Source: Metallyticus violacea
Taxonomy: Eukaryota; Arthropoda; Insecta; Mantodea; Metallyticidae
DNA length: 64,000 nucleotides
Reading direction: 5' to 3'
Assembly: GCA_030762175.1 (NCBI GenBank)
Contig: CM060831.1
Coordinates: 126,501-190,500, forward strand
A program made the position numbers and the translations under genes. The notes beneath the pieces are model-generated. The model did no database searches. It saw nothing but the letters and a program-made list of their open reading frames with translations, and was not told the origin of the DNA. Of the stretch, positions 527 through 61,850 are shown piece after piece; the stretch's first letter is position 1; every line of letters begins with the position of its first letter.

Positions 527-1570
527 TGGCTGACGAATCGTTGGTGCACATGAGTTCCGAACTAGACATCTTTAAAGACTTGCCCGTTCAAATGAACGTG
601 GAGGAGTACCGTTACCATTCTCTAAACCCTCAATTTACACTTATGAAAAAACGCCCCCATCACATTTCATTACTCTGGCAATGCAGACGATTACCTCGAC
701 ATGACTTATGTAGTACTTGAGCTGTTCGTGCGAATAGTGGATGACTGTGGAAACGACTTGAAAGAGGACAAGCAGGTTAGCTTTGTAAACAATTCCCTAA
801 ATTCCTTGTTTCAGCAATTGGAAATTATCACTCAACCATGTCACAGTTTCCATGCTTCAGCCAGGCTACCCCTATAGAACTTGCATAGAAACGTTGCTCC
901 ATTATTCGGAAGATGTCATGAACAGCAGACTACAGTCCTCGCTCTGGAAAAAGGACAAGGGAGGAATGATGGACGCGTATGTAGCAAATGATGGAATTAA
1001 GTGGCGTAACGACTATACCAAAGGAAGCAAAGTTGTGCAGCTAATGGGTAATCTATCCAATGCACTCTTTAATCAGGAAAATCTGCTCTTGAACAATGTG
1101 AGCGTTACCATCAAACTCTCACCCTCTTCACCCAACTTTCATCTCCTTACGCATACAAAGGACTTTAAAGCCTACACAGAGATTCAGTCTGCTAGACTGA
1201 TTTTGAAAGCTGTGAGACCGTCGCCGACCATCAAGCTTGCACATCAGGCGGTGTTAGCAAAGAGTAATGCAAAGTACCATCTCAAAGATGTGGGATTTCA
1301 CGCTCTCATCATTCCAAAGGGGGTTAGTAACATGACTTTCAATGACATTTTCATTGGGCAAATACCCCGAAGAGTGGTTGTGACAATGGTTGCCGACCAG
1401 GCATACAACGGTAACATTAACAAAAACCCATACAATTTACAACACTTTAAAATGAATTCTTTTCAACTGTATGTGAACGGCCAGCCTTTTCCCTCACAAC
1501 CCCTACAGCCCGATTTTGATGCCGGTCACTTACTGCAATGTTTTCAAACATTGTTTTTTTCTTGAACAGC
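526..1570 (+). pseudogene. Hexon-like double jelly-roll major capsid protein (F54H12.2-like family), frameshifted and truncated
   Basis: Three consecutive frames carry one protein: 526 to about 670 (frame 1), about 680-840 (frame 2) and 852-1565 (frame 3). The long third part has the hallmarks of the family often annotated in animal genomes as 'uncharacterized protein F54H12.2-like': a 'YPYRTCIETLLHY' segment, a 'LWKKDKGGMMD' segment, 'LLNNVSVTIKL', 'FIGQIPRRVVV' and 'YNLQHFKMNSF', ending near 'PLQPDFDAGH'. I assign that family to the major capsid (hexon) of Polinton/adintovirus-like elements. Breaks lie near 675 and 845, and the normal C-terminal jelly-roll region after about 1545 is not recognisable. 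Length before the break is about 340 residues, shorter than the usual 400-plus. It is a dead copy. Confidence 0.75.
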
Positions 1571-1738
1571 AAGCAGCAGAAGTTTGCAGCCGTTGGGTTT
1601 TCACCTAAGTCTCTACACAAGATCGTGATGACCGTTGGTGGACGACGCAGCGCGGTGGTTCTGATTTCAACAGAGTGGCAGAAGCTTGCAGAGTCGATAC
1701 CGACTATACAGAGCTCGACTCTTCATCTAAGAGAGTGA
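1571..1738 (+). pseudogene. Small PC4-like fragment following the hexon remnant
   Basis: Frame 2 is open here and encodes about 55 residues ending 'TLHLRE' before TGA. It contains 'VGGRRSAVVLISTEWQKLAE', a pattern (basic Gly-Arg turn, hydrophobic strand, acidic-Trp-x2-Leu helix start) that recalls the PC4/whirly-type ssDNA-binding fold. The following ORF has a similar 'DGRCISLSMQEWRTLE', so the two may be duplicated paralogues. No clear start codon belongs to it; the ATG at 1538 lies in hexon-derived sequence, so the 5' end is probably lost. Function is unproven. Confidence 0.3.
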
Positions 1739-1801
1739 CATTTAACCCACCGACTATCCATGCTTTTTATACGTTTATTTGGCGCACGTAATATAATCAA
1801 A

Positions 1802-2110
1802 ATGGACGGTCGCTGTATATCGCTGAGTATGCAGGAATGGAGGACACTAGAAAGCCTACAGCGTATGGTCACCGACATCATATATCACAAGAAGAAAGAG
1901 GAGTTCGAAGCACAAAATCAAATAGCAGCCCATCGCAAGTATTTGTTTCACGCCCACGTTTCTGGGGGAAAAATGAACTACACCGAATACACAAGATACA
2001 TTCGTTGCGCAACCTTTAGAGTGTTCTTAGAGATGGAGCATTTTCTAAAACCGATATTCACCAGAGTTGGACCAGGAAGCCGTGGACAAGTTCACACAAG
2101 TTCAAGGTGA
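1802..2110 (+). CDS. Small uncharacterised protein with PC4-like N-terminus
   Basis: I prefer the ATG at 1802 to the in-frame ATG at 1760, because an AT-rich TATA-like stretch (about 1763-1798) lies just ahead of it and the recognisable domain begins at once. The protein has about 102 residues. 'GRCISLSMQEWRTLESL' near the start resembles the preceding fragment, followed by a charged helix rich in Lys and Glu, a Tyr-rich stretch and a hydrophobic end. The last 15 codons run into a duplicated DNA segment (2066-2345), so the natural C-terminus may have been altered. The place in the capsid-gene cluster suggests a small structural or DNA-binding protein of the element; this is inference. Confidence 0.4.
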   Translation: MDGRCISLSMQEWRTLESLQRMVTDIIYHKKKEEFEAQNQIAAHRKYLFHAHVSGGKMNYTEYTRYIRCATFRVFLEMEHFLKPIFTRVGPGSRGQVHTSSR

Positions 2111-2345
2111 GGTCGCACCTGTACCGTGATGACGTCACGAAAACACCTGCAAGAACAAGTCCAAACACCAGAACCTCCCGAACAAGTCCAGGCATGACGT
2201 AGAGATGAAGCATCTGATATTCAACAGAGAGTTGGACCAGGTAGCCATGGACAAGTTCAACGCGAGGTTGCACCTGCATCGTGATGAACACACCTGCACC
2301 CCTGCCCAAACACGAACAACTTATTACGTCACGAACAAGTCCAAG
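2066..2345 (+). repeat. Imperfect direct duplication of about 100 bp inside the viral-like block
   Basis: The stretch from about 2066 to 2163 ('agttggaccagg' through 'gaacaagtccaa') recurs at about 2230-2343 with the same ends and a few indels. Shared landmarks are 'gtggacaagttca', 'gcacctg', 'cgtgatga', 'acacctgca' and 'acgtcacgaa'. The copies start about 165 bp apart. The duplication sits between two small ORFs and has probably altered the end of the first and the start of the second. Confidence 0.75.
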
Positions 2346-2360
2346 CAAGGTGAACATATG

Positions 2361-2615
2361 ACAAGTCACCCGCAAACCATGGACCTAGTGATAAAGCTTC
2401 TGAAAAATGGTCGTCGTCTCACAATGATGGAGCCAAATGAACGTCATCTACTAGCCGTGGAGGGAAACGCCATCTTTATTCATCATTCGCCAGTGGATGT
2501 GGACGCTGTATGGGCGGAGCTTACACCAGAAGCTAAAGGAATTTACGCCCCTTACCGCCGCTGCAACCAGCACTACAACCTCCCCCCCTCACCAAACAAT
2601 GCCCAATGTGTGTGA
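2361..2615 (+). CDS. Small uncharacterised protein of the Polinton-like block
   Basis: The open frame begins upstream at 2205, but that part lies in the duplicated segment, so I take the ATG near 2361 as the likelier start, giving about 84 residues. It includes 'LLKNGRRLTMMEPNERHLLAVEGNAIFIHH', another variant of the Gly-Arg-strand-acidic-helix pattern of the two preceding ORFs, and ends in a Pro-rich, low-complexity tail. I do not recognise a named family. It is followed 30 bp later by the next small ORF on the same strand. Confidence 0.35.
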   Translation, partial: TSHPQTMDLVIKLLKNGRRLTMMEPNERHLLAVEGNAIFIHHSPVDVDAVWAELTPEAKGIYAPYRRCNQHYNLPPSPNNAQCV

Positions 2616-2643
2616 GTAGCTAAAGTTCTACAGAGAAGTCAAC

Positions 2644-2952
2644 ATGATCAACGACGCGTTACGCCAACTAACTACAGTAGCGAGCAACTCGGAGTATGTA
2701 TCAGTGTCCACGTTACAGGCGAACGTACCATACGTCGTGGTATGGGTCCGGAACATATCCACAAAGCATGGACCCAGGACGCTTGTTCGCCTCGAAAACG
2801 GGAAAGATGTGTTTCTACCTACAAGATTTAACAATCTTTCTGCAGAACTCATCAACCAGCTCAACTCGTTCGACTTTTACATCGTGTACCAGGGTGAAGA
2901 GGTACTCAGAAGCGGCTACCGGAGACACGTATTGAAGTTTACACCGAAATAA
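2644..2952 (+). CDS. Uncharacterised ~102-residue protein, possible OB-fold-like nucleic-acid binder
   Basis: The frame is intact from ATG 2644 to TAA. The middle reads as two beta-strands around 'STKHGPRTLVRLENGKDVF' followed by 'LPTRFNNLS', then a strand 'FYIVYQGEEV'. A similar arrangement ('FGP..V.L...VFLP.RF' followed by 'Y.G') occurs in small uncharacterised proteins common in metazoan virus-derived and transposon-rich loci. I would guess an OB-like beta-barrel, but no assigned function is known to me. It lies tightly between same-strand ORFs (the next ATG is at 2958), suggesting the compact gene layout of the element has survived here, unlike the broken capsid genes. Confidence 0.5.
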   Translation: MINDALRQLTTVASNSEYVSVSTLQANVPYVVVWVRNISTKHGPRTLVRLENGKDVFLPTRFNNLSAELINQLNSFDFYIVYQGEEVLRSGYRRHVLKFTPK

Positions 2953-2957
2953 ACAAC

Positions 2958-3356
2958 ATGCCCAGTCAAACAGATCCGGTGGTAGTAGGCAACAATGTAT
3001 TTGTCAAACTAGTTTTTGACAACCAAAATCACATCACACAAAGCGGTGAGTACCCCGCAAACATCAACCTCATCTCAACAGAAATGTCCTTTGGCGAAGA
3101 CAAAACTGTTACCGTCAAATTAGCAACCAACAACTCCGACGTCGTGAAAGTCACGTGCCTCCCGTCTAAAGCACTCCACTACGGCATAGACGCACGCTGC
3201 ACCATCTACCTCGGAACCATGGACAAAACGCCAGCCCTAGAATACAAGGTCACATCGGCAGGATGCTTCACAACCGCAGCCATCAGCGATTTCGACGTCC
3301 CAATCGCCATTCCGTCGGCCCAGGTAGACCTCAACATCAACTTTTCCCACATGTAA
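2958..3356 (+). CDS. Uncharacterised ~132-residue beta-rich protein, last gene of the Polinton-like block
   Basis: The frame is intact from ATG 2958 (five bases after the preceding stop) to TAA. The protein has no signal peptide or membrane helix. It is rich in Thr, Val and Asn with alternating hydrophobic residues, as in an all-beta fold ('NVFVKLVFDNQNH', 'KTVTVKLATNN', 'VDLNINF'). That suggests a small capsid-associated or fibre-like protein; I do not recognise the family. It is followed by a repeat-rich non-coding stretch, consistent with it being the terminal gene before the element's end. Lack of stop codons here against the broken hexon gene is notable. Confidence 0.45.
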   Translation: MPSQTDPVVVGNNVFVKLVFDNQNHITQSGEYPANINLISTEMSFGEDKTVTVKLATNNSDVVKVTCLPSKALHYGIDARCTIYLGTMDKTPALEYKVTSAGCFTTAAISDFDVPIAIPSAQVDLNINFSHM

Positions 3357-3821: not shown

Positions 3822-3962
3822 ATACCCCTTTTCCGGTGATTTAATTTGAAAAAGTTTTGATATCAAATTGCCTCATCGCTTCCACCCCCACCCAACGACG
3901 CCCACCTTTCCCCACTTTTGATATCATTAGCAATCAATTCAAGCACCGGAAAGGGGATATAT
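3822..3962. repeat. Imperfect inverted repeat (arms about 45 bp)
   Basis: The left arm 3822-3871 begins with 'taccccttttccggtg'; the right arm 3913-3962 ends with 'caccggaaaggggata', its near complement. Inside the arms both sides also carry 'gatatca' and an AT stretch in matching positions. The spacer is about 41 bp and C-rich. It may be a remnant of the element terminus or an unrelated fold-back element. Confidence 0.6.
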
Positions 3963-4104
3963 ACTACTGGTACCTTACCTATTGGCAACATATGTCTGTA
4001 TTATCCGTAAAATTTTTAATCATATTTAGTTAAATATTTACAAAATACTTGCTTTTCACATGTGCAAGAAAATTTAAACACACAAGCCTATTTCATTTAA
4101 AACT

Positions 4105-11959: not shown

Positions 11960-12360
11960 CTACACCTAAGTCCAATGTAGAAATGGCTTTAAGCACATAG
12001 GGCAATAACAATAAAAAGCCCAAAACAAATAACAGGGGTAAAATAGTCAGCAAACAAAAGACTGGTACTAAAACACAGCCGCAAGAGCGGAAAATCATAA
12101 GTCTTATAATAGCCTAAAATTGTGACAATGAAACCCCAAAACAAAAACAAGGGCATTTTTGGTCAAAAATAAATAAAAACTGGCAGTAAAACGCATCAGC
12201 AAGAGCTGAAAACACAACAGTCTTGTAATGGTATAAAATTGTAGCATTAAAACCCCAAAACAAATAACAAGGGCAATATGCACCACAACAAATAATGACT
12301 GGTACTAAAACGCATCAGCAAGAGCTGAAAACACAACAGTCTTATAATACTCTATTAATG
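11960..12360 (-). repeat. LINE1 3'-UTR tandem repeats (about 3 x 120 bp)
   Basis: Units share 'cccaaaacaaa', 'aacaagggca', 'actggtactaaaacgc', 'agcaagagctgaaaac' and 'agtcttataat' in order, at about 12018, 12134 and 12252. A related array lies at 26440-26880 in LINE2, so repeats in this 3' UTR are a family trait. Confidence 0.8.
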
Positions 12361-24073: not shown

Positions 24074-24222
24074 ACTACCCAGCTACTGGCAACCCGGCTG
24101 TCACCCGCTGGCAAGTAAAACTGTGCATTATCGGTACATTCAAGAAGAAAGTCTTATTAGTGTAAAATATTGCTAAACTGGTAGTATTGTCACCAGTGTA
24201 GAGAAACTAAATCACAAAACAA
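24074..24222 (+). repeat. Isolated monomer of the 185-bp satellite family
   Basis: It contains 'ggcaacccggctgtcacc', 'gcattatcggtac', 'attagtgtaaaatattg' and 'tagagaaactaaatcac', in the same order as the array at 36.8-42.9 kb. The last motif is of the type I label E there. It abuts LINE4, so the LINE block may have invaded the array. Confidence 0.75.
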
Positions 24223-33600: not shown

Positions 33601-35601
33601 ACTAGGATTGCCAGGCATGATGTCGCAGGTCTAAACCGGGAGATAGACTGGAAAAACGTTAAGGAATGCCTCAGCACTATCATCCCTCCCAACCCTAAAA
33701 TCACAGACATCTACTCCCTAGAGCCTAGTCTCATTCTCCCTGACAGTCACCAAAGTCACCCACAGTCTCACAATCCATACTTCTGTCCTCTCTTTACGGA
33801 ATGCCATACCGCTAGACCTCGAGCTCATCCGTCGCTCCTGGGCCGCCCGCAGACTCTATCAGCGTCACCGCACGTCGCATCATCGAACTCTGTTAAAGAC
33901 CTTACACCGCCAAGTTAGTGTCCGCCTCCACGAGCACAAGAAGCTCGCGTGGGAGGACATTATGGCAAGACAGAGATTAATTCATGGCGACGTGTGGAGT
34001 ATAGCTAAGAGCCTCCGCGGACAACCAGACAAAGCCTTCCGACACATCCATGGCATCCAGGGCTTCGTATACGATCATCACGTCAAAGGCTATGCTCTCG
34101 CTTTGGAACGCCTATTCAGGTCTAGGGACGACCCCCAGGACGATAGCTTTTCAAGTCAGGTTCGTCGCGACGTCCGTCGATATCTTCGACGGCCGCCGGA
34201 TGAAGATGATTTAAGGTTTCCCATTTTTCACCCCAACGAAGTCCAGGGCGCAATCCAGGGTCTGAACCCCAAAAGGACTACCGGACCTGACGGAATAACC
34301 CCCCCCCTCATGCTCCGCAACCTTCCTTTCAAGGCTGTGCTCTTTGACACAAACGTCTTCAATGTATACATCAGCCTGAGCCACTTTCCACGAGAGTGGA
34401 AGGAGGCACAGGTGATATGCATAATGAAACCAGGCAAAGACCCAACCCACCCTTCCAGCTACCGATCAACCAGCCTGCTTTCCACACTCTCAAAAGTGTT
34501 TTGAGAGATTACTTCTTGACCGTTTGCTTCCCTTGCTGAGAATCATGCAAGCCATCCCCTCTCACCAATTCGATTTCTGTCCTGGGCGTTCTACTACCCA
34601 ACAGCTGCTGAGGGTTATGGAGGCCTCAGCCTTAGGTTTCCAGGAGAGGTCCATCACCCCAGCGGTATCTTTGGATGTAGAAAAGGCCTTCTCGACGACC
34701 TGGCATGCCGAGATCCTATGCAACCTCTTTCACCTGGAGCTACCTAAAACCTACATACAACTACTACACTCATACCTTAAGCACCGCACTTTTAAAGTAG
34801 CGGTAGCGGAAAACAAATCAACACTAAGACCGATACAAGGCGGAATACCCGAAGGTTCTGTTCTATCCCAAATTCTGTTTAACATCTACACATCAGACTT
34901 TCCCCACACAGCAGACGTCAACACCGCTCAATACGCAGACGACATCCTGCTAGACAAAACAAATAGAAACCTAAACAGACATTCCCATACAAAGACTACT
35001 ACACCTAATCGAAAGATGGTGTAGGCGTTGGGGAATGTCAATCAACCCAGCAAAGAGCCACTCCATAATTTTCACAAAACGCCGCGTAGCCGCAACCCCC
35101 TCCCCGCACAGTAACATACAAACAGCAAACGATAAGGTGGAAAAATTCCATAGCCTACTTGGTGTGCAACTCGATATGGGTCTAACCTTCAGGTAACACA
35201 CAGCAGGGACTGCTCACAGGGCACAGGGAGCAATAGTTCCACTGTTTCCTATGCTTAGTTCTAAGGCGATGCCAGTCCGCCTGAAATCACACCTTTTCAA
35301 AGCCCTGGTTATCCATGTCATATTATACGCCTGTGAAATCTGGGGTATGGCGGCTGACAGTTCGTTCGCACTTCTGCAAAGGTACAGAATAAGGGACTCG
35401 GGACCATTTATTCTGTATATCGATGCTTTCCAGTCGGGCTACTTCATTAAGACCTCCTCCTTCCCACATATTGAGGAAATTAGATGCCGGGCCAAAAATT
35501 TCTTCGCCCATTTACCTAATCATGAAAGCGCTCTTGTTCGATCAATTGGCAGCTTTCTTGTCGCAATAGGCCTAAGCCAAAATTCAAGTTGCGACGCCTA
35601 G
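33601..35601 (+). pseudogene. LINE3 ORF2 reverse transcriptase and C-terminal region
   Basis: Finger motif 'TTGPDGITPPLMLRNLP' and 'FPREWKEAQVICIMKPGKDP' (33962-34504), then 'QFDFCPGRSTTQQLLR', 'LDVEKAFSTTW' and the active site 'QYADDILL' (34524-35024). The C-terminal 'HVILYACEIWGMAA' lies at 35251-35601. The Y-A-D-D box is intact, but stops and shifts occur at about 33920, 34504, 35024 and 35195. There is no RNase H, as in jockey-type elements. Confidence 0.85.
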
Positions 35602-35985
35602 CGCGTGGCCACATTGGATAACAAAGGGTAAAACCTAGCAACAGGAAAAACATTCCAACTCCCCAACAAAATAACCATAAAAATAACAATCAGAAAACCA
35701 AGTAACAGTATGCCCATGCTATTTACAAAGTAAGTAAAAACATGCGCGTATCAAGCATAATCCAAAGATGTCAGATATACCCGCTTCAGCAAGGATACAG
35801 ACTACAACAATCTAGCGGGGCTGTTCTTGAGACCCAAAGGCAGAGTCTTATATGGGCGCTTCATAAGCCCGAAAACTGAATATAAAACCACCAATAATTA
35901 TAACCACTATTGTTATTTTAAATTGCAAGGCTGGGTCGATTGTACCAGCTTCAGGCACACCTAACCTTAATAAAACCATATACCA
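35602..35985 (+). other. Probable LINE3 3' UTR and boundary with LINE5
   Basis: A-rich sequence follows the last LINE3 codons. No poly(A) tail or target duplication was identified, so the LINE3 3' end is not fixed. No other gene seen. Confidence 0.4.
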
Positions 35986-36832
35986 TACGCCTCCCTGGAC
36001 CCCACAATTTGACAATGATCGGGGCTCCATGAACCAGAGACTTTGGACTTCGTTGTCACCAAAAATGCAGCATTAACAGAAAATTTCACAGCCTGGATTC
36101 GGATCACTTGCCTGTGCTCTTCGAAATCTGTGGCGCCATGGCGGCCAGGGTTTTGAACCTAGTCCGGGACGCCGACATCGATTGGAAGAAGTAAAAGTTG
36201 CACCTGTATGCGATGGCGCAACCCAGACTGTGCTACAGCAACGAAGTAGATGTTGACGCTGCCATTGAAAACTTCACTGCTTCGCTACATACGGCGAAAA
36301 TAAATGCCACCACCATTACTGTTTCGCCGCCTAGTTTTGTTACGTACCCAGAGGTGTTACACATTTCGACCATACTTTATGGAAATTAGTTAAATCCTTC
36401 AAGATATCCTCCAGCGTATACACTGGCAACGTTGCACTTCACACTCCAGCTGGCCCTATTTTCTCCTCAGAGGAGAAAGCGGAGGTATTTGCTGATGTCC
36501 TCGCAAATCACCTTCAGGAAAACAAAACAACAGACCAGCAGCAGGATCTTCAAGTTAGGTCTTGGGTTCGAGACTGGGCGGCACGGAAGTCCGAGCAACC
36601 ACTCCGCCTAATTACGCCTCAGGAAGTTTTCAAACAGACATGATTACTTAGTAATCGTAAAGTTGCCGGCCCGGACAGGGTGACCAATGAGGACCTTAAA
36701 AATTTACCGATAAAGGCCCTGGTGCAACTGATACAAATGTTTAATGCCTGCTTGCGGCATAATTATTTTCCTTCCAAGTGGAAAGAGGCCAGAATAATTA
36801 CATTACACAAGCAGGGCAAGAGCACCAGAAGT
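35986..36832 (+). mobile_element. LINE5: truncated jockey-like LINE fragment
   Basis: In shifting frames: 'LDFVVTKNAALTENFT' and 'DSDHLPVLFEI', the end of the endonuclease, then 'AGPDRVTNEDLKNLP', 'FNACLRHNYFPSKWKEARIITLHKQGK' (36680-36830), the RT fingers. Similarity stops after 'KQGK', and satellite monomers begin at once. It differs in sequence from LINE3, so it is a separate insertion. Confidence 0.75.
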
Positions 36833-39800
36833 GAAACAAACAGTGATGTCTATTTCATTAAATTGGATAATCAATTTATAATTCCAGTCAAAAAGGCTAA
36901 ATTTTTGACAGTCCTATCCCGCTTAACAGCGGCCGGGATGTAAAACGTGGATTATCGGTAAAATTGAAAATAAATCTTATTTGTCTAAAATATCGTTAAA
37001 CCGACAATATTGCCATCTGTGCAGATAAAATAACAAGCCTATTTCAGTATTAAAACTAGTAATGTTTCCAAAGCAAAATGCTGTATGTATTATGGGCATT
37101 TGTGCTGTTATTGATCGGCGAGAGAATTGCTGTGTTTTCAATAAATTTACAAAAAAAAAAAAAAAAAAATTGATACAAAATGTTCCCAAAGTAATACTAT
37201 TACCACCTGTGCAGAGAAACTGAATTGGGCATGATCATTTCACTATAAAGTGAGTGATCAATTAATATTTCTACGAAAAAAATGAAATGTGTGACAGGTT
37301 TCGGGCTGTTAATGATGGTATATAATATGGGGCATAATCGGTAAAATGACAAATAAGATTTCATTATTGTACAATATTGTCAAAGTACTAATATTGTTAC
37401 CTGTGCAGAGAAAATGGCCTGAGACGGTCCTTTTACGTAAAAATTCGGTATTACATTTATATTACCACCTCAAAGGAGATAAATTTATGATGGACCATCG
37501 GGCTCTTACCTGCTTGCTAGTAAAAGTGTTAATTATAGGAAATTTTTCTTGTAACATATTGTTAGTAATGTCCTGTGCGGGAATATTTATTGAGTCAGTA
37601 ATGCCTATTTCCGTAAAAATTGGATTTTCAATTTATAATTCCATTGTAAATGGACTAAATTTATGAAAGACGATCTGGCTCTCACCTGCCGGCAAGTACA
37701 ATCATGCATTACCGGTAAACTTAAGAATAAAATATTATTAGTGTTAACTATTGCTTAACAGTGCAGAGAAACTAAATCAAGGTCGCCTATTTCCGTATAC
37801 AACTGCATTATCAACTTACATTTCCAATCCGAAAATGCTTAATATGTTATCGTAAATCGTGATATTAATTGACGGCGACAGAATTGCTTCGTTTTTATTT
37901 AAAAAGTCAATAATGCTTTATAAATATAAAATGTTAAAGTAGATTGTACTACCACAGAAACTGAGCCGTTTATATTTATTTCACCAAAAATGTGCGATTC
38001 GTTTAGTTTCCAACGTAAAAAACGAAACCTATGACTGTTTCGGGTGTTACTTCCGGCATGTCAAACAGTGCATTAAAATTTTTAATAAAGAACAATGTTT
38101 TATTATTATAAAACATTTCCGAAGTACCAGTATTTTAATTGTGCAGTGATTAGATATTCCACCAAAATTAATTATTCCATTCAAATTTCCACCTGAAACA
38201 GGCCAAATGACGAGCTATTGGCCTCTTACTTGCCAGCTAATAAAACTGCCCATTATCTCTAATTTTCTAACAAAATATTTTTCTTGTAATTTCTTGCCAA
38301 AATTGTAATAATATCATCTACACAGAAAAACTGGATGCTTATTTCAGTTAAAATTGGTATATCAATTTATAATTTCATCGCAAAAATAATAAATTTGTGA
38401 CTGGGGTTCAAAATCTTACTTGCCGGTAACAGAATCCCTCAATTATCGGTAAAAAAACCAACCACAAATTTTATGTACAATAATAACAAAGTATTTTTTT
38501 CTGTGTGTACAGAAACTGACAAAATGATGCCCTGTTTCAGTTAAAATTGGATAATTATTTTAAAAATCCACGAAAAACGGATAAATTTATGGTAGACTAT
38601 CGGGCTGTCATCTATTAGACAAGTGAAATACTGCATTGGCGGTAAAAAGAACAAATCTTATTAGAAATATAGCTAAACTGGTGATATTGCCACCTGTGCA
38701 GAGAAATAAGACTATTTCAGCATAACACCGTGAAATAAAGTATAATTTCCACTGCCAAATTGATAGATATTCTACTGGCGATCTTGTGGGTAATTACCGG
38801 CAGAAGAATTTCTCAGTTATCGATGAAAATACCAAACATTTTATTGACGAAAAATGTTCACAAAGTGCAGAGAAAGTGAATTGTAAATGTTTATTTCACC
38901 ACATTTTGGCGATTAAATTATATTTCCACAGCGAAAAAAAAATCAAATGTATGACTGGTTTTGAATTGCTACCTATCGACATGACTAACGGTCCATTATC
39001 GAAACAATGTAGAACTTTTACTTATATTAAATATTATTCACAAAGTACTAGTATTTTAACTTGTGAAAGGAAACTGACCAGTGACGTGATTTTCAGCCGA
39101 GGTTAATTTCATGAAGTACAATCGGGCTTTTATCTGCCCGCTAATAAAGCGGTTCAATATCGGTAAAATTATCAACGTGATATTATTCTTATAAATATTG
39201 CCAAATTCCTAGTAATATCATTTTCGCATTACGACTGAATCAGCGATGCCCATTTCGGTTAAAATTGTATGATTAAATTTGAGCCTTTTTCCACAGCAAA
39301 GAGGCTAAATTTATGACCGGCAACCAGGCTCTCACCTGCCGGGATGTAAAACTATGCGTTATTGGCAAAGTCAAGAACAAAATATTTTTGGTATAAAATA
39401 TTGCCAACTGTAAAATATTGATAAAATATATTACCACAGAAAATGAATTGTACATACTAATTTCTCCAAAAAGTGTGAGATCCATCTAAATTCCACCGCA
39501 AAAATTAAAACGTATAACAGTTTTCGGGTTGTTATCTAACGACATGTAAAACGGCGCATTATCGGTAAAATGAAAAGTTACATGTAACATATTATAAAAG
39601 TGCTAGTATTGTAACTTATGCCGACAAACTGCCAAATAATGGATTTTCCGTCATAAAAATAGATATTACTTGTATTTTTCTAACGCAAAGAAGCTAAATT
39701 TATAAAAGGAAATGGGGCCTTACCTGCCAGCTAGTAAAACAATATGTAATAGTGAAATTTACGAACTCATCATTCTTGTAAAATTTTGCTAAAATCCTAA

Positions 39801-42800
39801 TAATGCCCTCTCCAATTTCATAACCGGCAACCGGGCGGTCGACTAGTACTACGCTGCATCATAGGTAAAAGCAAGAGCATGTAACTATTGCTAAACTGCC
39901 AGCTTTGCCATCTGTCCAAAGAAACTAAACCACGGACTCCCATTTCAGTATAACACTGGGGTAATCAACTAAGACTTTCAACACCAAAATACTAAATACG
40001 TCACCCGCGTTCGGGCTGGTAACTGTTGGCAACAGAATTTCTCAGTTATAGATAAAAAAGAGGACAAATATTTAATTGGTGCAAAGTGTTCACAAAGTAG
40101 TGGTATTTCCATCCCTACAGAGAAACTGAAACGTACATGATTACTTCACCAGATATTGGACGATTAATTAATATTTCTACCACAAAATACAACACGGTTT
40201 CAGATTGTTACCTGGCGTCATGTAATATGGAGCATAATCGGCAAAATGAGAAATAACATATAAAATATTGCCGAGTACCTGTGTAGAGAATTCGGCCTGT
40301 GATGCTACTTTTGGGTAAAAATTAGGCATTACATTTATATTTCCAAACGCAAAGAAGCTAAATTTATGACAGGACATCGAGCTCTTATATGATTGTTAAT
40401 AAAACGGTTTATTATCGGTTAAACGGTAAACATTAATTTTATTCTTTTAAAACATTGCCAAATTTCTAGTAATGCCATTTGCGGAAAGAATCTGAATCAG
40501 TGAAGCCTATTTGAGTAAAAATTGATGATTAGTCCATAAATCCACAACAAAAATTTAAATTTATTACAGAGATTCAGGGTCTGAGCTGCCAACACTAAAC
40601 CCAAAATTATCGGTAAAAACTTGAAATACATTGTTTTGTGCAAAATATTCATCTAATTAGTTCACGTGTGCAAGGAAAATGATACAATGATGTTTATTTC
40701 AGTGACACTTTGACGAACAATTTATAATTCAATTTTAAAGGGGGAAAATTTATGATCAGCAATCGGGCTAAGAACTACAGGAAATTAAAATGGTGCATTA
40801 TGGTAACAAGAACAAATTGTAATTAGTGTAAAATATTGTTAAACTAGCACTATTGGCACATATATATAAAAAAAAACAAAGGCATATTTCAGTCAAAATC
40901 CCGGTAATGAACTAATATTTCCATCTCCCAAAAGCTAAATATATTACCGGTGAGAGAGTTTCTCAGTTATCGATAAAAATACAAAAATATTTTATTAATG
41001 AAAAATGTTCACAAAGTAGTGCTATTACAACCTGTGCAGAGAAACTAAGCCTACATGGTTATTTCACCAAAAATGGGTGAATGATTTCACCTTAAAAACA
41101 ACTGAAAAGGGGGAATTGTCACTTGTACAGAGAAACCAACCAGTGGTGGGATTTTTAGTAAAAATAATATGTATTACATTTACATTTGCACCGCAGAGAG
41201 GCTAATGTGCGAGGGCCTCGAGCTATTACCTGCCGGCTAGTAAAACGATTTGGTAAAATTTAAAACATATTCATGACAAATATGGTCACAGTTCTAGAAA
41301 TGCTATTTCGTAAAGAATGTTTCAGTTAATTTATGATCCATTTATAATTAGACCGCTAAAAGGATAAATTTATAACCGGCATTCTGGATTTTATCAGCCG
41401 GCCGCATAACGATACACTGCGCAAAAATTTAAACACTTAATTTTATGTAAAATATTCACAAAGAGTTAGTTTATTTCATATGTGCAAAGAAACTGAAACA
41501 CCGATGCCTATTTATATTACAATTTATTATCAATTTATAATTCCATCATAAAATGTTAAAAATTATTATTGGACATAGCATTTTTCACCTGCCAGGAAGT
41601 AAAACACTGCAATATCGATAAAATGAACATTTTATTGCATTAATGTAATGCCAAAGCACTAATATGGGTTTTTGGGCACAGAAAATAGCCAATGATGTCA
41701 TTTTCAGGCAAACATATATATATACACACACACACACACACGACAAAGAGCCGAAATTCATTACATGCAATCGGGCTCTTACCTGCTCGTAAAACGGTTC
41801 ATTGTCAAATGAACATATTATTCTTTTAAAATATTACCAAATTTCTAGTAAAGCCATTTACGCTGAGAAACTGAATCAGTAATTTTTCAGTTAAATTGTC
41901 ATTATTTAATAATTTCACCGAAAAATGTCAAATTTATAACAATCATTCCAGGTATTCGGCTCCGGTTCCTTGAATTATCGGTATAAACCAATCACATTGT
42001 TATGTAAAGTATTCACACTGTGCTAGTTTTTTTTCTCATTTGTAAAGAAGCTGATACAGTCATGTCAATTATGATACGAATTGTATGATAAAATAATTCC
42101 ACCGTATAGAGCTAAATTGATGACCGGCCATCAGGCTGTTATCTCCCGGCACTAAAAAAATAAACAGAGAGAGATGAATAAAAAGAAAAAGACTATTGGT
42201 AAATCTAAGAAATATATCTTATTAGTGTACAATATTGCTAACTGCTAGTACTACCTATACAGAGAAACTAAATCCCGAACACCTATCTTAGTATGAAACC
42301 GCGTAATCAACAACCTTTTCCATAGCCAAAATGATAAATATATTACCGGCGTTTGGGCTGGTAATTGCCGGCGACCTTTTCTCCGTTTTAGATAAAATCG
42401 GAAAAATATTTCATTGATGAAAATGTCCATACAGTAATGGCATTAAAACTGTGCAGAGAAAATGAAATGTACACGTTTATTTAAGCTAAAAGTGGGTGAC
42501 CAACTTATATTTCCATCTCTAATACCAAACTTGGTTTTGGGTTATCTACCGTCAGGTAAAACGGTGCATTATCTGTAAAATGGCCAACATTGTATTCATT
42601 CACATATTGCCAAAGTATCACTATCTGCACAGAGGAATTGAATTTGGTTAAAATGTGATGATCAATGTATTATTCCACTGCTAAAACGCTAAATTTATGA
42701 CCGGCATTCCAGATCTTGCAAACCGGTAGCATGATCCCTATATTATTATAAAACTTGAACATTTTTTTTTGCAACACATTCACAAATTAATATTTTTTTC

Positions 42801-42950
42801 ATATTTGCAAAGATATTGAAATGGTAATGCCCATTTCAGTTAAAATTAGATTATCAATTTTATAATTCCACCATAAAACGCTGCATTATTGGTAAAAATC
42901 AAGAACATAATAGACTGCTACTTTTGAATAGTATATCGTTTTCATTTCTT
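36833..42950 (+). repeat. Degenerate satellite array, ~185-bp monomer with ~915-bp higher-order order
   Basis: About 32 monomers follow head to tail. Each has, in order, a 'ccggc...gccgg' small inverted repeat, 'gcattatcggtaaaat', 'gtaaaatattgc', 'gtgcagagaaact' and 'ttaaatttatgacc'. The 'gcagagaaact' site recurs about every 185 bp (for example 37203, 37391, 37571, 37761, 37952). Monomers fall into roughly five types (A-E) by the sequence after that site; E-A-B-C-D order recurs. A marker unique to type A, 'ctcagttatcgat' or close variants, is at 38812, 40041, 40962 and 42381. No coding capacity. Units are strongly diverged, so it is old or under weak homogenisation. Confidence 0.85.
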
Positions 42951-43980
42951 CCTTTATTAGCAAAATTTTTACAATAACACTGGATTCTTGATTGTTCCCA
43001 AAATATACAAATCAGATTTTAATAAGGCAAGCGAGGTTAAAAAAAGGAAATAATTCATGTCATATGTTGTTTGTAAGTTACGATATTAATTCATTGTAAG
43101 ATCACATGGACTCACTGGAAACATAAAGAGAAAATTTTCCATTAATTAAAGGACTGACGCAAGCTTGTTAAAAGTAAATAATCAGAAATACAATTTACAT
43201 TACTACAACGAGGTTTAAAAATGCCTCAACATTTGGAATCTATGAAAAGTATCAATTACGGACTCACAATTTCACTGATAAATGGAGAAAAATTACAATT
43301 GAAATGCAAAGAGAAAGTTATAAATACAAGTCAATTGTTCCTGCTGCCAGAAAGTGAACCATCTCACCAACAAAACTTTATTTAACATCTTGGTTATTGG
43401 AGCCTTAACAGATTATTTACGACAACTAATACGTCACTTTGCACCAGTTAAAGAGCTCAAAGATGGTAAATTGGCTATGGCCAAAAACAACAGCATAACG
43501 TGAAGAGAACGACAGTACCAGAGATTCTGATAGAAATACTTTGGTTTTTCCAATTTTTTTCTTTACAAGTCTGTACATAATGTAGGCATTCTAAAATATT
43601 TCCCTCTAATGTGCTTAGAATAATGTTTCATTGAATATTTAAAAAAATCATAATTTTAATTCATTCTTGTGACACATTTTCCTTCTCATTAAATGCAAGC
43701 ATTTATCCTTCTCTTGAGCAAATGTTCAAGTATAACCGACATTGAAGGACTCTCCAAATGGGAGAATAAATGGGTAAAAACAATTAAGGAGGTACACGAG
43801 AGAAATCTTTCCTAACAAAGAAGCAAAATATGACAATGATTACAAATTTAGCTATCATGATAATAAGATGTGAAAAAACCAAGACTTATCTATAATGACT
43901 TGAAATAATATATGTTCTTCCCTTCACAATGGACATGCAGCACATCACCCAGTAGACTTATGTTTCAGAGAGAGAGAGAA
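42951..43980. other. No gene seen
   Basis: AT-rich sequence between the array and the tandem duplication. A patch at about 43230-43500 has few stops in one frame but no recognisable family. Confidence 0.5.
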
Positions 43981-45327
43981 ATAACTATATAGACAACATT
44001 ACATTTCCTGTCATAGACATATAACTATAAACACAAACAAAAAATGCATTTATCAAACGGCGACAGTTTTGAATTTTAAGTTCATGTAATGTACTGCAGT
44101 TTGCTACATATTAGCATTCATTTAAAATTGTACGCAGTACACATTTACAACTTTGAAGCTTGTTATTTCACGTTTTAAAAGCTTGTTTTTTCACAAACAC
44201 ATAGTATGCATATGTTATGTTTTAGGTAAGAAGAAAAGCGAGAGCTTTATGTCAAATAAGGCTGTTGGTCATTAAAATCTCAGTAAACTGCCTGAAATAC
44301 TGTTATAATAATATACAGCGATACTGATGAGAAATTCCTGGAAGACTTTTGCCATACCTTCTCAAATCTAAAGAAAAGCTCAGAAAACATTCAGAACTTT
44401 CTTGGTGCCATAAAGCTGTGAAACATTACTACTTTAAATAAATGGCTAGAAAAATAATATTCATGTACTAAACTCTATAAAGCCACTCAGTTTTAATTAG
44501 GAAGTCCTATTGCAGCACACTTCTGAAAAGGGAAATGGAGATCTCCATAGAGTGATTGACAATGGATTTTTTCTAACAAAGCACAAATATAGAAAATAAC
44601 TAAGTGTGCTAACATTTCTTGGTTTAATAGGTTCGTAACATATTCACCATATTTGTGTGAGGTCATCAACTTATGACGATTAAACCTAAGCCATAAAAGA
44701 CTGTATGAACAATTCTAATTTAAACTTGGCATTTATAGATGTCAGAGGAATCTCAAGTGCCATGTATGTGATAAAATATTCCTTGCACATGATATGGCAT
44801 ACAATTTTATTTTTATACTCAAATGTCAAACAAAGAGAGAGACAAACTGAACCAGGACATACAAAGTAAAACACTACAGTTCCTAAACTTTCATAGCCAT
44901 ATAACTATCAAAATAAGCAAAAATTCACATATAAATACAATTTTAGTCTCCAGGAGAAGTTAATGTAATGTATTTAAGTTTTTTATGTATTAGCATTCAT
45001 TTAAACTTTTATGTAGACACATTTAGAGCTTTGAAGCTTGTATTGAATATCTTTGTAAATGCTCGTTCTTTCACAAAACCATGTATGCATTTCTTAGGTA
45101 AGAAGAAAAGTAACTAATTATGCAAACAATGTCAGGTTGCTGGTCACAACATTAAAATCCCAGGACTATGCAAAGTAATGTGTATAACCGATATAATAAT
45201 AGTTATATTAGGGAAAAGCTCAGAAAAACAAATTCAGTACTTCATTAGAGAACAAAAGTTGTGCAACATTTTAAATTTACAAATAAATGACAAGAAAAAG
45301 AAAAGTAATATACAGTTAAGTCAAGTA

Positions 45328-45330
<3 letters not shown>

Positions 45331-50939: not shown

Positions 50940-51165
50940 GAAATGCTTCTTAGTACTCCATTTACGCCCCCCTGTCCTATATAATAGAAGAAAGGTTTCT
51001 TTGATTTGCATTTACCCCTTCCCCATGCAATTAAAACATGTTTCTTAGTGTTTCATTTACCCCCTCCCTATATTATCAAAAATGTTTCTTAGTGTTGCAT
51101 TTACCCCCTCCTTATATTATCAAAAATGTTTCTTAGTGTTGCATTTACCCTCTCCCCATTAACTT
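50940..51165. repeat. 44-bp tandem repeat, about 4-5 units
   Basis: The unit 'atgtttcttagtg' plus 'catttaccccctcc' recurs at 51038, 51082 and 51126, 44 bp apart, with more diverged units to the left at about 50943 and 50992. The later units are nearly identical, so the array is recent. Confidence 0.85.
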
Positions 51166-58349: not shown

Positions 58350-59330
58350 AAGTAATAATTTTTTTAAAAAAGGAAAATGCAAAATTAAAATCTAAAAACT
58401 GGGTGCAATAATGATTTCATTAGCGGCATTCGTGATGTCACTTCGAATACTGAAGCTTGCAATATCGGTTAGCTACGAACTAAATGTGCTGTATGATTTA
58501 AATAACGAACTGAACTATATTAATTCAAACTATAAACTACTATAATTAACATTTATGTAATAAAAATAGTTTTGACCTCTATTTGTATGCAAAAGTTGGG
58601 TGATCTAATTGCATTACTTTAGAAACAGTTGAAATTTCACTACTGGCATACGGGCTTGTCAACTGTCGGATATCAGAACAGTGGAATATCGGGGAAAATA
58701 CAAACCATATTTCTGTGAAGAAACTCCTTTTAATTCAATTGAAATATACTAAGATCCAATTACAGTTCCTGCTCAAGAACGAAAATTGTACTAATGGCGG
58801 TATCGATGATACTACGAATAAATATTAATATAAAAAATTACTAAACTAGTACCATTGACAACTATGTGAAGAAACAAAGCCATTGACGCTTAATTTAATA
58901 TAGAAAATGGAGAGATATTTCAAACGCTAAAAAGGAAGCTTAACTAACGGAATTCCGACTTTCACGGGCAGGTAGTTTAAAATGTGCACTATAGGTGAAA
59001 TTACAAACTCATAATAATTTAAACAATTAATCAACCAATACTACTTCATTTATTTTTATCAAAATAATGTTTGGTGGCTATTAAAACGTAAAAAATGTGA
59101 ATTGCGTTTTTAAAGAAAAAATCGAGATTTTACTAGCAGCATTCAGGTTGTCCCTTGCCGGCTACTGAATCAGGAGGGTTGTTGGTGAAATTAGGAACCA
59201 AATCTTTATTTAAAAAAACGGAACGATTAGTATTATTATATATGTAGAGAACAGAATTTGGTGCCTATTTCAAAGAATAATCACGATGAACTTATTATAT
59301 TTCAATCACAAAAAAGATATTAAAGTTTTT
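58350..59330 (+). repeat. Second array of the 185-bp satellite family, left part
   Basis: Monomers here have 'gccggc..tgaa', 'atatcgg', 'tgtgaagaaac' and 'taatttaatatagaaaa' in order, a diverged version of the 36.8-42.9 kb unit. Sites equivalent to 'gcagagaaact' lie at about 58720, 58868 and 59245. Confidence 0.7.
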
Positions 59331-59639
59331 ATTTTAAAGACTTTCTTATAATTCTAGATTCGTTTGAACCACTGGCGAGGAACGAAATAGAAATGCTATC
59401 GCACTCTCTCACTGAACACAGTTTCTTTTACAATATCTGCGCGGTACAACTTTTATAACCAATTAAATACTTCGCGTTGCTGTTTTGTTGTTTTATCGCG
59501 ACTTTTTCACACTAAATTCGCCGTAGTGACTTCAAATTTAATAATTTACTCGTCTGGGTGACGAAAGAACAAATATTTCACTTACACAGAACACAGCTTG
59601 AGACTTGTTGAACTACTAGCAACTCCCTGAAATATTTGA

Positions 59640-59960
59640 CTCAAAATATTAGCAACTGTGTAAAACCTCCCCGTGCTATCGTTGCATGAACTATTTGCGA
59701 CACCACGAATAGTTTCCAACTCCCCGAATATCCCAGGAATTTGGTTATTTAAGCGCTCTTAAAGTTTCATGATGCTTGTATTCAAAATAACATTCTGGAA
59801 GCTTCCTAAATTCTATCTTCTTATTGGCTAGATAACTGAATTTCAGAACCTTCTAGGAGCTAGATTCGAAAAACAGCCTTCTGGTTGGCTACAATTCCCA
59901 TTTACTTTTCAAATGGGCGAGTTATCCAAGCTACACTTGGCAATTTTCACATTTTTTAGG
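59640..59960 (-). promoter_or_regulatory. Candidate heat-shock-type promoter in a unique island
   Basis: A perfect heat-shock-element triplet TTCnnGAAnnTTC is at 59793-59805. A second site GAAnnTTCnnGGA (last unit near-consensus) is at 59846-59858. ATTGG (CCAAT on the minus strand) lies at 59823. On the minus strand a TATA-like 'ttaaataa' follows at about 59744-59751, some 40 bp from the first site. The downstream minus-strand sequence is A-rich, like an insect hsp leader, with 'gtgtaagtg' (a possible donor) near 59579. No hsp coding sequence follows; satellite monomers do. Elements are seen; activity and direction are inferred. Confidence 0.4.
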
Positions 59961-60081
59961 AATCGCTAGACAAAAGCACAGAAATTTCAGCTTTGTATCT
60001 ATATTGCTGTTCCAAGGACTTTTTCAGACAATAATAGAAAGGTCGTGGAGAAAACATTACTTGGACCTTGCCACTGACTCC

Positions 60082-60151
60082 GGAGAGTCGTGAACAAACA
60101 TACAACATTCGGGGTAGGAGAGTCGTGAACAAACATACAACATTCGGGGTA
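60082..60151. repeat. Perfect 35-bp tandem duplication
   Basis: The unit starting 'ggagagtcgtgaacaaacat' is repeated exactly at 60082-60116 and 60117-60151, inside the unique island. Confidence 0.9.
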
Positions 60152-60379
60152 GATACAACTTATATCAGCAATTTTGTATGATGAAATTTCTCTTATTATA
60201 TACTTATTCATTTCTCTGATGCGCATATTACCACTCTGCACTCTACTTACTTTCCTAGAATTATTATAGCATTACAAAATTATATACATAGAACAGAACA
60301 TACATTAATAAGCAATTAAATGGCAATACCTCCTATATTTCCGTAAGCCTACGGGAGTCGAAGCTGGGTATCCCGCTTC

Positions 60380-61850
60380 GAGTATTAATGTAAAAAAATT
60401 ACTAAATATTAGTATTGTCATCTATTTGAAGAAACTATGTAAATTTAGCCTTGTTCAATTTAACAATATTGTGGTCTAATTTCACTGCAGTAACGAAAAT
60501 ATGACTGCCGGCATCCAGAATGTCACTTGCCAGCAGCTGAAGCAGTACAGCATCGGTGATTGTACGAACTTAATATTATTAATGTAAAAATGTACTGAAG
60601 GTTTAGTAGTAAAATTATGTGGAAAAAACAGAGTATTTGCGTCTATTTCAATGTACAAGCAGGGCGATTCAATTACATTGCAATCCCAAGCAAAAAAGTT
60701 CTGCCACGACCATTCATGCTGTCACTGGTAGGTAGCTGAATATATGTGTTATTGCTAAAATCAGGAACCAAAATTGATTATATTAAACAATTAATTAATA
60801 TCATTGCCATTTATGTAAATCAACGTGGTCTTTAATGTATATTTAAATGTAGAAATTGTGATCAAATTATATTTGTACTGCATGAACGACATTATACTAC
60901 CGCATTTGGGCTGTCACCTGCTGACTAATTAAGCAGTAGAGTTTCAGTGAAAATACGAATTAAATATTAACATAGAATATATATATATATAGTCTTCTTG
61001 TCATAGAAGAACTCTAGCAGTTCGACATATAGCGATTACATTTGTTAGTGTTTTATTCTTTTCTGCTTTTCTAGTTTTACATATATAATATATAGATATA
61101 TACATCTATGAGGCAAAACTGGGTCATTTCATTAGCTATTTCAATGTAAAAAAAACGCTGATCCAATTAAGAGGACCATCATCTCACTACGAATCAAATA
61201 TAAATGTAAAAATTACTAAGCTATTAGCATTGGCATCTATGGGAAAAAAAACTAGGTCTATTTCATTGCAAAAGTATGGTTACCCTATTACACTTCCACC
61301 GCAAGAATGCAAATTTCACTATCGACATTTGGGCTGTTACCTGCCAGTAATGGAAGCAGTGCAGCTACATACTAAATATTATTTAATGTTAAAATATTCC
61401 CATACTACTGGTATGTCTTGTAAGAGGACAAATTGCTTCAATGATTCCTAATTAATGGGTGATTAAATTATATATCTACTACAAAAACAGTACCTTTACC
61501 ACAGAAGTTGGGGCTATCAGATGATGACAAAACATGCTGTTTAGTGTCAGTGATATCACAAACCAAATGTTACCAGCATTTCTCATTATCACCTTCTGGC
61601 AAATGAATCTGTGCCTCATCAGCAAAACTGAAAACAAAATTTCATTAATGTAAAAATATTAAGAACTATTAATATTTCATCTATATGGAGAAACTAAGGC
61701 TTTGACACCTATTTTAATGTTAATACTGCATGATTAAATTATATTTCAACTCAAAACTAATAAATTTGAAAGTTGCCGCTACTTTCTGATAGGTAAATCT
61801 TAGTAATTGCTGAAACATTATATTAAGAACAAAAATATAAATTGTAAAAT
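60380..61850 (+). repeat. Second array of the 185-bp satellite family, right part
   Basis: Monomers with 'tattaatgtaaaaa', 'tagtattgtcatctat', 'gaagaaact', 'gcctattt' and 'ccggcatc' recur at about 60425, 60617, 60820, 61238, 61425 and 61690, roughly every 185-200 bp. The array is interrupted by a PLE-type fragment at 60983-61080. Confidence 0.7.
60983..61080 (+). repeat. PLE1-type terminal motif inserted in the satellite
   Basis: The plus strand reads 'tcttcttgtcatagaagaac', 'tctagcagttcgacatatag' and 'agtgttttattcttttctgc'. This is the reverse complement of the left arm at 7957-8040, with scattered changes. It is flanked by AT dinucleotides on both sides, like the other copies. No PLE body is attached. 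Confidence 0.75.

What the first reader, a model, noticed from the sequence alone, without database searches (positions are those of the whole stretch)
36833..42950. Five-part higher-order satellite (about 185-bp monomer, about 915-bp period)
Reading the array by its recurring 'gcagagaaact' site gives about 32 monomers. The sequence after the site sorts them into five types: A 'ttatttcacc..aa.tgg', B 'tttt..gtaaaaat', C 'gaatcagtgatgcc', D 'acaatgatgcc', E 'taaatca...ttcagtataacac'. They recur as A-B-C-D-E, for example from 40112 to 41029 (917 bp) and 37952 to 38864 (912 bp), with some deletions and local reshuffling. The type-A marker 'ctcagttatcgat' reappears at that spacing. A higher-order repeat this diverged, in a TE-rich arm, is unusual and points to an old centromere-like or locally amplified array.
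Basis: seen in the sequence. Interest (0 to 1): 0.75.

Follow-up and report, generated by a model that had tools for sequence, protein, structure and literature searches.

The report
Fossil five-part satellite near chromosome ends

Summary
34 units of ~185 bp fill 36839-42884. Blind clustering plus order tests show a real A-B-C-D-E higher-order repeat: 27 of 33 neighbour steps advance one type, 5 skip one, 1 skips two, none go back. Plain lag-5 identity is only weakly raised because deletions shift the register. In copy L029 the array runs past the window's end as 11 units in perfect order.

"Centromere-like" is not supported. The window starts 126.5 kb from the start of contig C2. Of 40 places found, 34 lie within 1.1 Mb of a contig end, on 22 ends, all facing the same way; 5 are internal, 1 unplaced. 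Only 40 of 401 candidates were scored.

Of 20 fetched 10-kb copies, 19 share the irregular signature EABDABDEA. The closest two match array and flanks at 98.5-98.6%, while units within the array average 57%. Best reading: a decayed pentameric satellite, no longer homogenised internally, carried in subtelomeric blocks exchanged between non-homologous ends. A known kind of feature, unusually well preserved in order.

The parts
36839..42884 (+). main array: 34 units of ~185 bp, order DEABDEABCDEABDABDEABCDEABCDBCDEACD
37955..38868 (+). complete A-B-C-D-E period (A 37955, B 38143, C 38325, D 38510, E 38708)
40119..41037 (+). complete A-B-C-D-E period (A 40119, B 40285, C 40487, D 40675, E 40880)
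38869..40118 (+). irregular stretch A-B-D-A-B-D-E (types missing); the signature EABDABDEA is present in 19 of 20 fetched 10-kb copies
41038..41128 (+). short unit, assigned to type A
35319..45330 (.). segment that aligns as one block to C10L (98.5%) and, over nearly the same span, to C15L (98.6%) and C8L (96.0%)
34428..35021 (+). reverse transcriptase fragment (RVT_1) left of the array
58412..61815 (+). second, more diverged and interrupted stretch of the same monomer family (13 profile hits)
24083..24190 (+). isolated monomer fragment, 80.8 bits
3944..4054 (+). isolated monomer fragment, 31.1 bits

Best explanation
It is a fossil pentameric higher-order satellite carried inside a subtelomeric duplication block. 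Step 1 (inferred from the types): a ~185-bp monomer array diverged, and a run of five adjacent monomers was amplified as a ~915-bp unit. Step 2 (supported by irregularities shared between copies): types were lost, as in A-B-D-A-B-D-E, before today's copies separated. Step 3 (supported by divergence): homogenisation inside the array stopped; units of one array are now ~57% alike on average. Step 4 (copying of the block shown, mechanism inferred): array and flanks were copied together between non-homologous chromosome ends, left and right, keeping their polarity toward the end, most likely by break-induced replication or tip translocation. No sequence-specific function is indicated: in the five close copies measured, array and flanks diverge about equally.
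For: Order tests and, outside the sequence used to define the types, 11 units in perfect order in L029 beyond the end of the window's array. 34 of 34 terminal places, on 22 ends of 13 contigs, face the same way; 33 lie within 540 kb of an end and one at 1.05 Mb. (CCTAA)n starts the fetched left ends of C3 and C15 and follows an N run on C4. All 34 window units fall collinear in 9 of 20 ten-kb copies, at median unit identity 89.1-98.9%. In L014, L015, L017, L018 and L020 the array is 97.6-98.9% and the flanks 96.9-99.5% identical, gaps set aside. The tree of 21 copies splits five from sixteen; on each of the five ends where both kinds were fetched, the first kind lies nearer the end. C12R and C5L are sisters in both groups (100/99 and 100/100), as if one exchange had spanned both positions, 52-58 kb apart.
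Against: 5 of 40 places are internal (C13 at 127.0 and 127.4 Mb, C15 at 67.5 and 69.5 Mb, C7 at 80.5 Mb), and the fetched one on C13 has median unit identity 97.5% to the window; assembly error was not tested. Only 40 of 401 candidates were scored. The first 10 kb of C2 and of C10 show an N run and then other repeats, no CCTAA array. In the two more distant copies measured, flanks are often less alike than the array (L021: array 93%, left 83%, right 69%; L022: array 92%, left 83%, right 93%); global alignment of broken flanks may explain this, but the array could be conserved. Some copies show steps that are not forward, such as the same type twice running (L023, L028, L030-L033, L035), so not every departure is a simple deletion.
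Confidence: 0.88

Rival explanations
1. An old centromere-like array, a remnant of a former or present centromere: units of near-nucleosome length in a higher-order repeat once held a kinetochore.
For: Higher-order organisation is best known from centromeric alpha satellite (review passages); 5 of 40 places are internal.
Against: 34 of 40 places are terminal, and nine contigs (C3, C4, C5, C6, C7, C8, C10, C12, C15) carry them at both ends on opposite strands, which one centromere per chromosome would not give.
Confidence: 0.04
2. An actively used subtelomeric satellite: the array is kept because it seeds heterochromatin or serves as homology for recombination that repairs or lengthens chromosome ends.
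For: Present at 22 contig ends with constant polarity; in two more distant copies the array is more alike than at least one flank (L021 and L022).
Against: In five close copies array and flanks diverge about equally; units within the array are strongly diverged; TTAGG-type repeats exist at contig ends, so the satellite need not be the telomere; no consensus RNA structure and no clear excess of dyads in a rough test.
Confidence: 0.12
3. A tandem-repeat part of a large transposable element that targets chromosome ends, so that its copies spread by transposition and not by exchange.
For: A reverse transcriptase fragment lies left of the array; copies are numerous.
Against: Close copies share both flanks to the limits of the 10 kb fetched, with no break at the array border; orientation is fixed in 34 of 34 terminal places; C12R and C5L are sisters at two positions 52-58 kb apart.
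Confidence: 0.04

Closest known systems
Human subtelomeric duplicons (PMC2323237; passages seen)
   Same: Blocks shared among chromosome ends, the listed large ones at about 90-98% identity, with orientation maintained; explained there by translocation of chromosome tips.
   Different: Here a diverged pentameric satellite is carried inside the block as a readable marker, and the contig ends bear TTAGG-type repeats, the motif given for insects and arthropods.
khipu subtelomeric satellite of Phaseolus vulgaris (PMC3797529; abstract and passages seen)
   Same: Satellite at most chromosome ends, with exchange between non-homologous subtelomeres inferred; some non-terminal copies of doubtful placement.
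   Different: There each subtelomere is a patchwork of distantly related units and local duplication goes on; here the order of units is largely frozen and collinear between ends. khipu has a 528-bp unit, and the word higher-order does not occur in the text searched.
Alpha-satellite higher-order repeats of primates (review passages in PMC5615363 and PMC8122249)
   Same: Several diverged monomers amplified together in fixed order.
   Different: Alpha satellite is centromeric and its higher-order units are homogenised; here units have decayed to 62-67% within blind clusters and lie near chromosome ends.
Chironomus ~350-bp terminal satellites (review passage in PMC9498494)
   Same: Complex satellite at chromosome ends of an arthropod; maintenance by recombination is stated there.
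   Different: There the satellite forms the telomere; here TTAGG-type repeats exist and the arrays lie tens to hundreds of kb inside.

Membership tests
Higher-order satellite repeat | monomer types recur in fixed order beyond chance | tested here: met
   11 units in order in L029 beyond the window's array
Higher-order satellite repeat | units of the same type more alike than units of other types | tested here: met
   at k=5, within clusters 0.62-0.67 (one cluster lumps A and D), between 0.543; clusters are defined by identity, so only the order test is independent
Higher-order satellite repeat | higher-order units homogenised (high identity between periods) | tested here: not met
   the best self matches inside the window's array are 67.6-70.2%; hence called a fossil
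Subtelomeric duplicon | block shared by many chromosome ends | tested here: met
   matches on 22 ends; flanks shared in the fetched copies that I aligned; type order read on 15 of the 22 ends
Subtelomeric duplicon | constant orientation relative to the chromosome end | tested here: met
   34 of 34 terminal places
Subtelomeric duplicon | contig ends are true telomeres | tested here: inconclusive
   CCTAA arrays start 2 of 5 fetched left ends and follow an N run on a third; none in the first 10 kb of C2 and C10; C1 left also starts in the repeat; right ends not fetched
Centromeric satellite | one main site per chromosome | tested here: not met
   nine contigs carry the family at both ends, for the 40 of 401 candidates scored
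Centromeric satellite | bound by centromeric histone | not testable with these tools
   needs chromatin data

The most novel reading that the evidence does not exclude
The frozen unit order works as a natural barcode: one founding array, with its missing types, was present in an ancestral subtelomere and has since been handed on whole to many chromosome ends (matches on 22, order read on 15), while exchange within arrays has practically ceased. Subtelomeric recombination in this animal would then go by blocks of tens of kb and not by local unequal crossing over in the satellite, and the internal copies would mark former chromosome ends (fusions or inversions).
Probability: 0.35. Interest if true: 0.6.

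Novelty: new member of a known kind. Interest (0 to 1): 0.48.

Why it matters
Satellites are expected to stay homogeneous by exchange inside the array. Here the opposite is seen: strong divergence inside the array and near-identity between chromosome ends, with order preserved. That gives a readable marker for how chromosome ends trade sequence and for ordering block exchanges in time, and it may flag ancient fusions at the internal copies.

Tried and rejected
Centromere-like reading: rejected on position and polarity of the places scored. Lag-5 identity as the sole test: weak, replaced by order tests. Structured RNA: no Rfam match in the window at gathering thresholds; the alignment fold of the units gave no structure, and an inverted-repeat scan gave a mean stem of 4.9 against 3.9 in simple shuffles, too rough to use. 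Typing the second array (58.4-61.8 kb) with the five type profiles: only 3 pieces passed 20 bits, so its order is not known. Whether the rest of the window is shared with other ends: the search with the right flank (42900-43900) did not complete. Literature: in eight searches no listed title or abstract pointed to this family; with the organism unknown and most listed papers unread this says little.
Full report
What was claimed and what is there. The reversed window and five dinucleotide shuffles reach at most 4.7 and 5.4 bits. Mean pairwise identity over 32 of the 34 units is 57% (two units too short for that alignment were dropped). Tandem Repeats Finder lists nothing here.

The higher-order repeat is real. 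Clustering by identity without position, then asking whether neighbours predict each other, gives mutual information 1.727 at k=6 against 0.589 +/- 0.124 in 5000 shuffles of order, none as high; k=5, 7 and 8 agree, k=4 gives p 0.0014, and k=2 and 3 show nothing. Collinear pairs of best partners number 25 against 8.2 +/- 3.1, the largest of 2000 shuffles being 22. With five types (the short unit put to A by me), 27 of 33 steps go to the next type, 5 skip one, 1 skips two, 0 go back: what deletions would leave. The marker named for type A lies in type E, and its two exact copies are 2150 bp apart.

Where it lies. The window is G000:C2:126501-190500 of a 2.32-Gb genome in 310 contigs. A 937-bp query from the array gave 84 matching pieces from the best 40 of 401 candidates. 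The 41 pieces with E of 2.8e-132 or lower merge into 40 distinct places, the window included; the other 43 pieces (E 5.4e-48 or higher) were not entered in that count and, by eye, lie beside places already counted. Contig length is known for 39 of the 40. Of these, 34 lie within 1.1 Mb of a contig end (33 within 540 kb), on 22 ends of 13 contigs, and all 34 are + at left ends and - at right ends; 5 are internal. Two of five fetched left ends (C3, C15) start in (CCTAA)n, C4 shows it after an N run, and C2 and C10 begin with N and then other short repeats. C1 also starts in the repeat. The setting is subtelomeric.

Copies and order. I fetched 20 of the 39 other places as 10-kb stretches and 4 more as 4-kb stretches; 15 were not fetched. 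Eight of the 20 (L014, L015, L017-L022) have the window's full type order, differing at most in whether the short A is scored. 19 of 20 hold the irregular signature EABDABDEA; the exception, L023, reads EBDABDEA there. The four shorter stretches show parts of the same order with local breaks; L036 has one unit called on the other strand. Type order was thus read on 15 of the 22 ends. Unit by unit, all 34 window units fall collinear in 9 of the 20 copies (L014, L015, L017-L022, L025) and 21-33 in the other 11; median unit identity runs from 98.9% down to 81.1%. Several copies have gaps, truncations or inserts, and some steps that are not forward, such as the same type twice running in L023, L028, L030-L033 and L035.

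The type profiles were built from the window, so close copies must agree. The more independent check is the part of the array that runs beyond the stretch aligned to the window: in L029 it reads E-A-B-C-D-E-A-B-C-D-E, 11 units in perfect order; L030 shows 9 in order and then a partial second C; L028 shows E-A-B-D-D, which is not in full order.

What moves is the block. L014 and L015 align to the window over their full 10 kb at 98.5-98.6%. I measured array against flanks in 7 of the 20 copies (gaps set aside). In L014, L015, L017, L018 and L020 the array is 97.6-98.9% and the flanks 96.9-99.5% identical. In L021 and L022 the array is 93% and 92%, with flanks from 69% to 93%; broken flanks in a global alignment may explain the low values, but selection on the array is not excluded. 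A tree of ~2 kb from 21 copies (root for drawing only) splits five copies (46-146 kb from their ends) from sixteen. On each of the five ends with both kinds fetched (C8R, C4L, C3R, C12R, C5L) the first kind is the nearer to the end. C12R and C5L are sisters in both groups (100/99 and 100/100), as expected if one exchange carried both positions. The window's copy groups with C10L, C15L and C14L (100/97), not with the other fetched 10-kb C2L copy. Identity between ends (to 99%) far exceeds identity between units of one array (57% mean; 72% to the best partner by local alignment), so exchange inside the array has been rare for long.

Mechanism. Most likely a pentamer was amplified, lost units and stopped being homogenised; later the surrounding subtelomeric block was copied between chromosome ends by break-induced replication or translocation of tips. 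The constant polarity fits, as in human subtelomeric duplicons, where orientation is likewise maintained and attributed to tip translocation (PMC2323237, passages). khipu of common bean shows exchange between ends but with a patchwork of units (PMC3797529, abstract and passages), the main contrast here. The mechanism is inferred; order, position, polarity and block identity are shown for the copies named.

Limits. 

Noticed in passing
58412-61815: Second, interrupted stretch of the same monomer family on the + strand (13 profile hits); 9 of its units average 51% identity to the main array's; type order not resolvable.
   Followed up: partly
24083-24190 and 3944-4054: Isolated monomer fragments of the family on the + strand.
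   Followed up: no
36356-36359: 10 of the 20 fetched copies (L016-L019, L021-L024, L026, L027) carry about 130-175 extra bases at or next to this point; the window, L014, L015 and L020 lack them, although L020 lies outside the window's close group of four in the tree: a hint of mosaic exchange within the block.
   Followed up: partly
L019 (C13:127017800-127027799): A copy with median unit identity 97.5% lies 9.4 Mb from the contig end with right-end polarity: misplacement or a former end.
   Followed up: no
L036 (C15:67.46 Mb) and C15:69.53 Mb: Two internal copies about 2 Mb apart in opposite orientation.
   Followed up: no
L009:2501-7427: About 5 kb of a diverged ~20-bp minisatellite (GACCTTGACCTAGTTGGCCT) next to the N run at the start of C2; CCTGA counts are also high in the first 10 kb of C3, C4, C10 and C15.
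   Followed up: no
43995-44240 and ~875 bp further right: A ~258-column self match of 71.7% at lag 875 in the right flank, outside the array.
   Followed up: no
12006-12349 and 50991-51156: Other short tandem arrays: 119-bp unit x 2.9 and 44-bp unit x 3.8.
   Followed up: no
801-3356: Series of open frames on the + strand; the one tested (801-1562) has no Pfam match.
   Followed up: no
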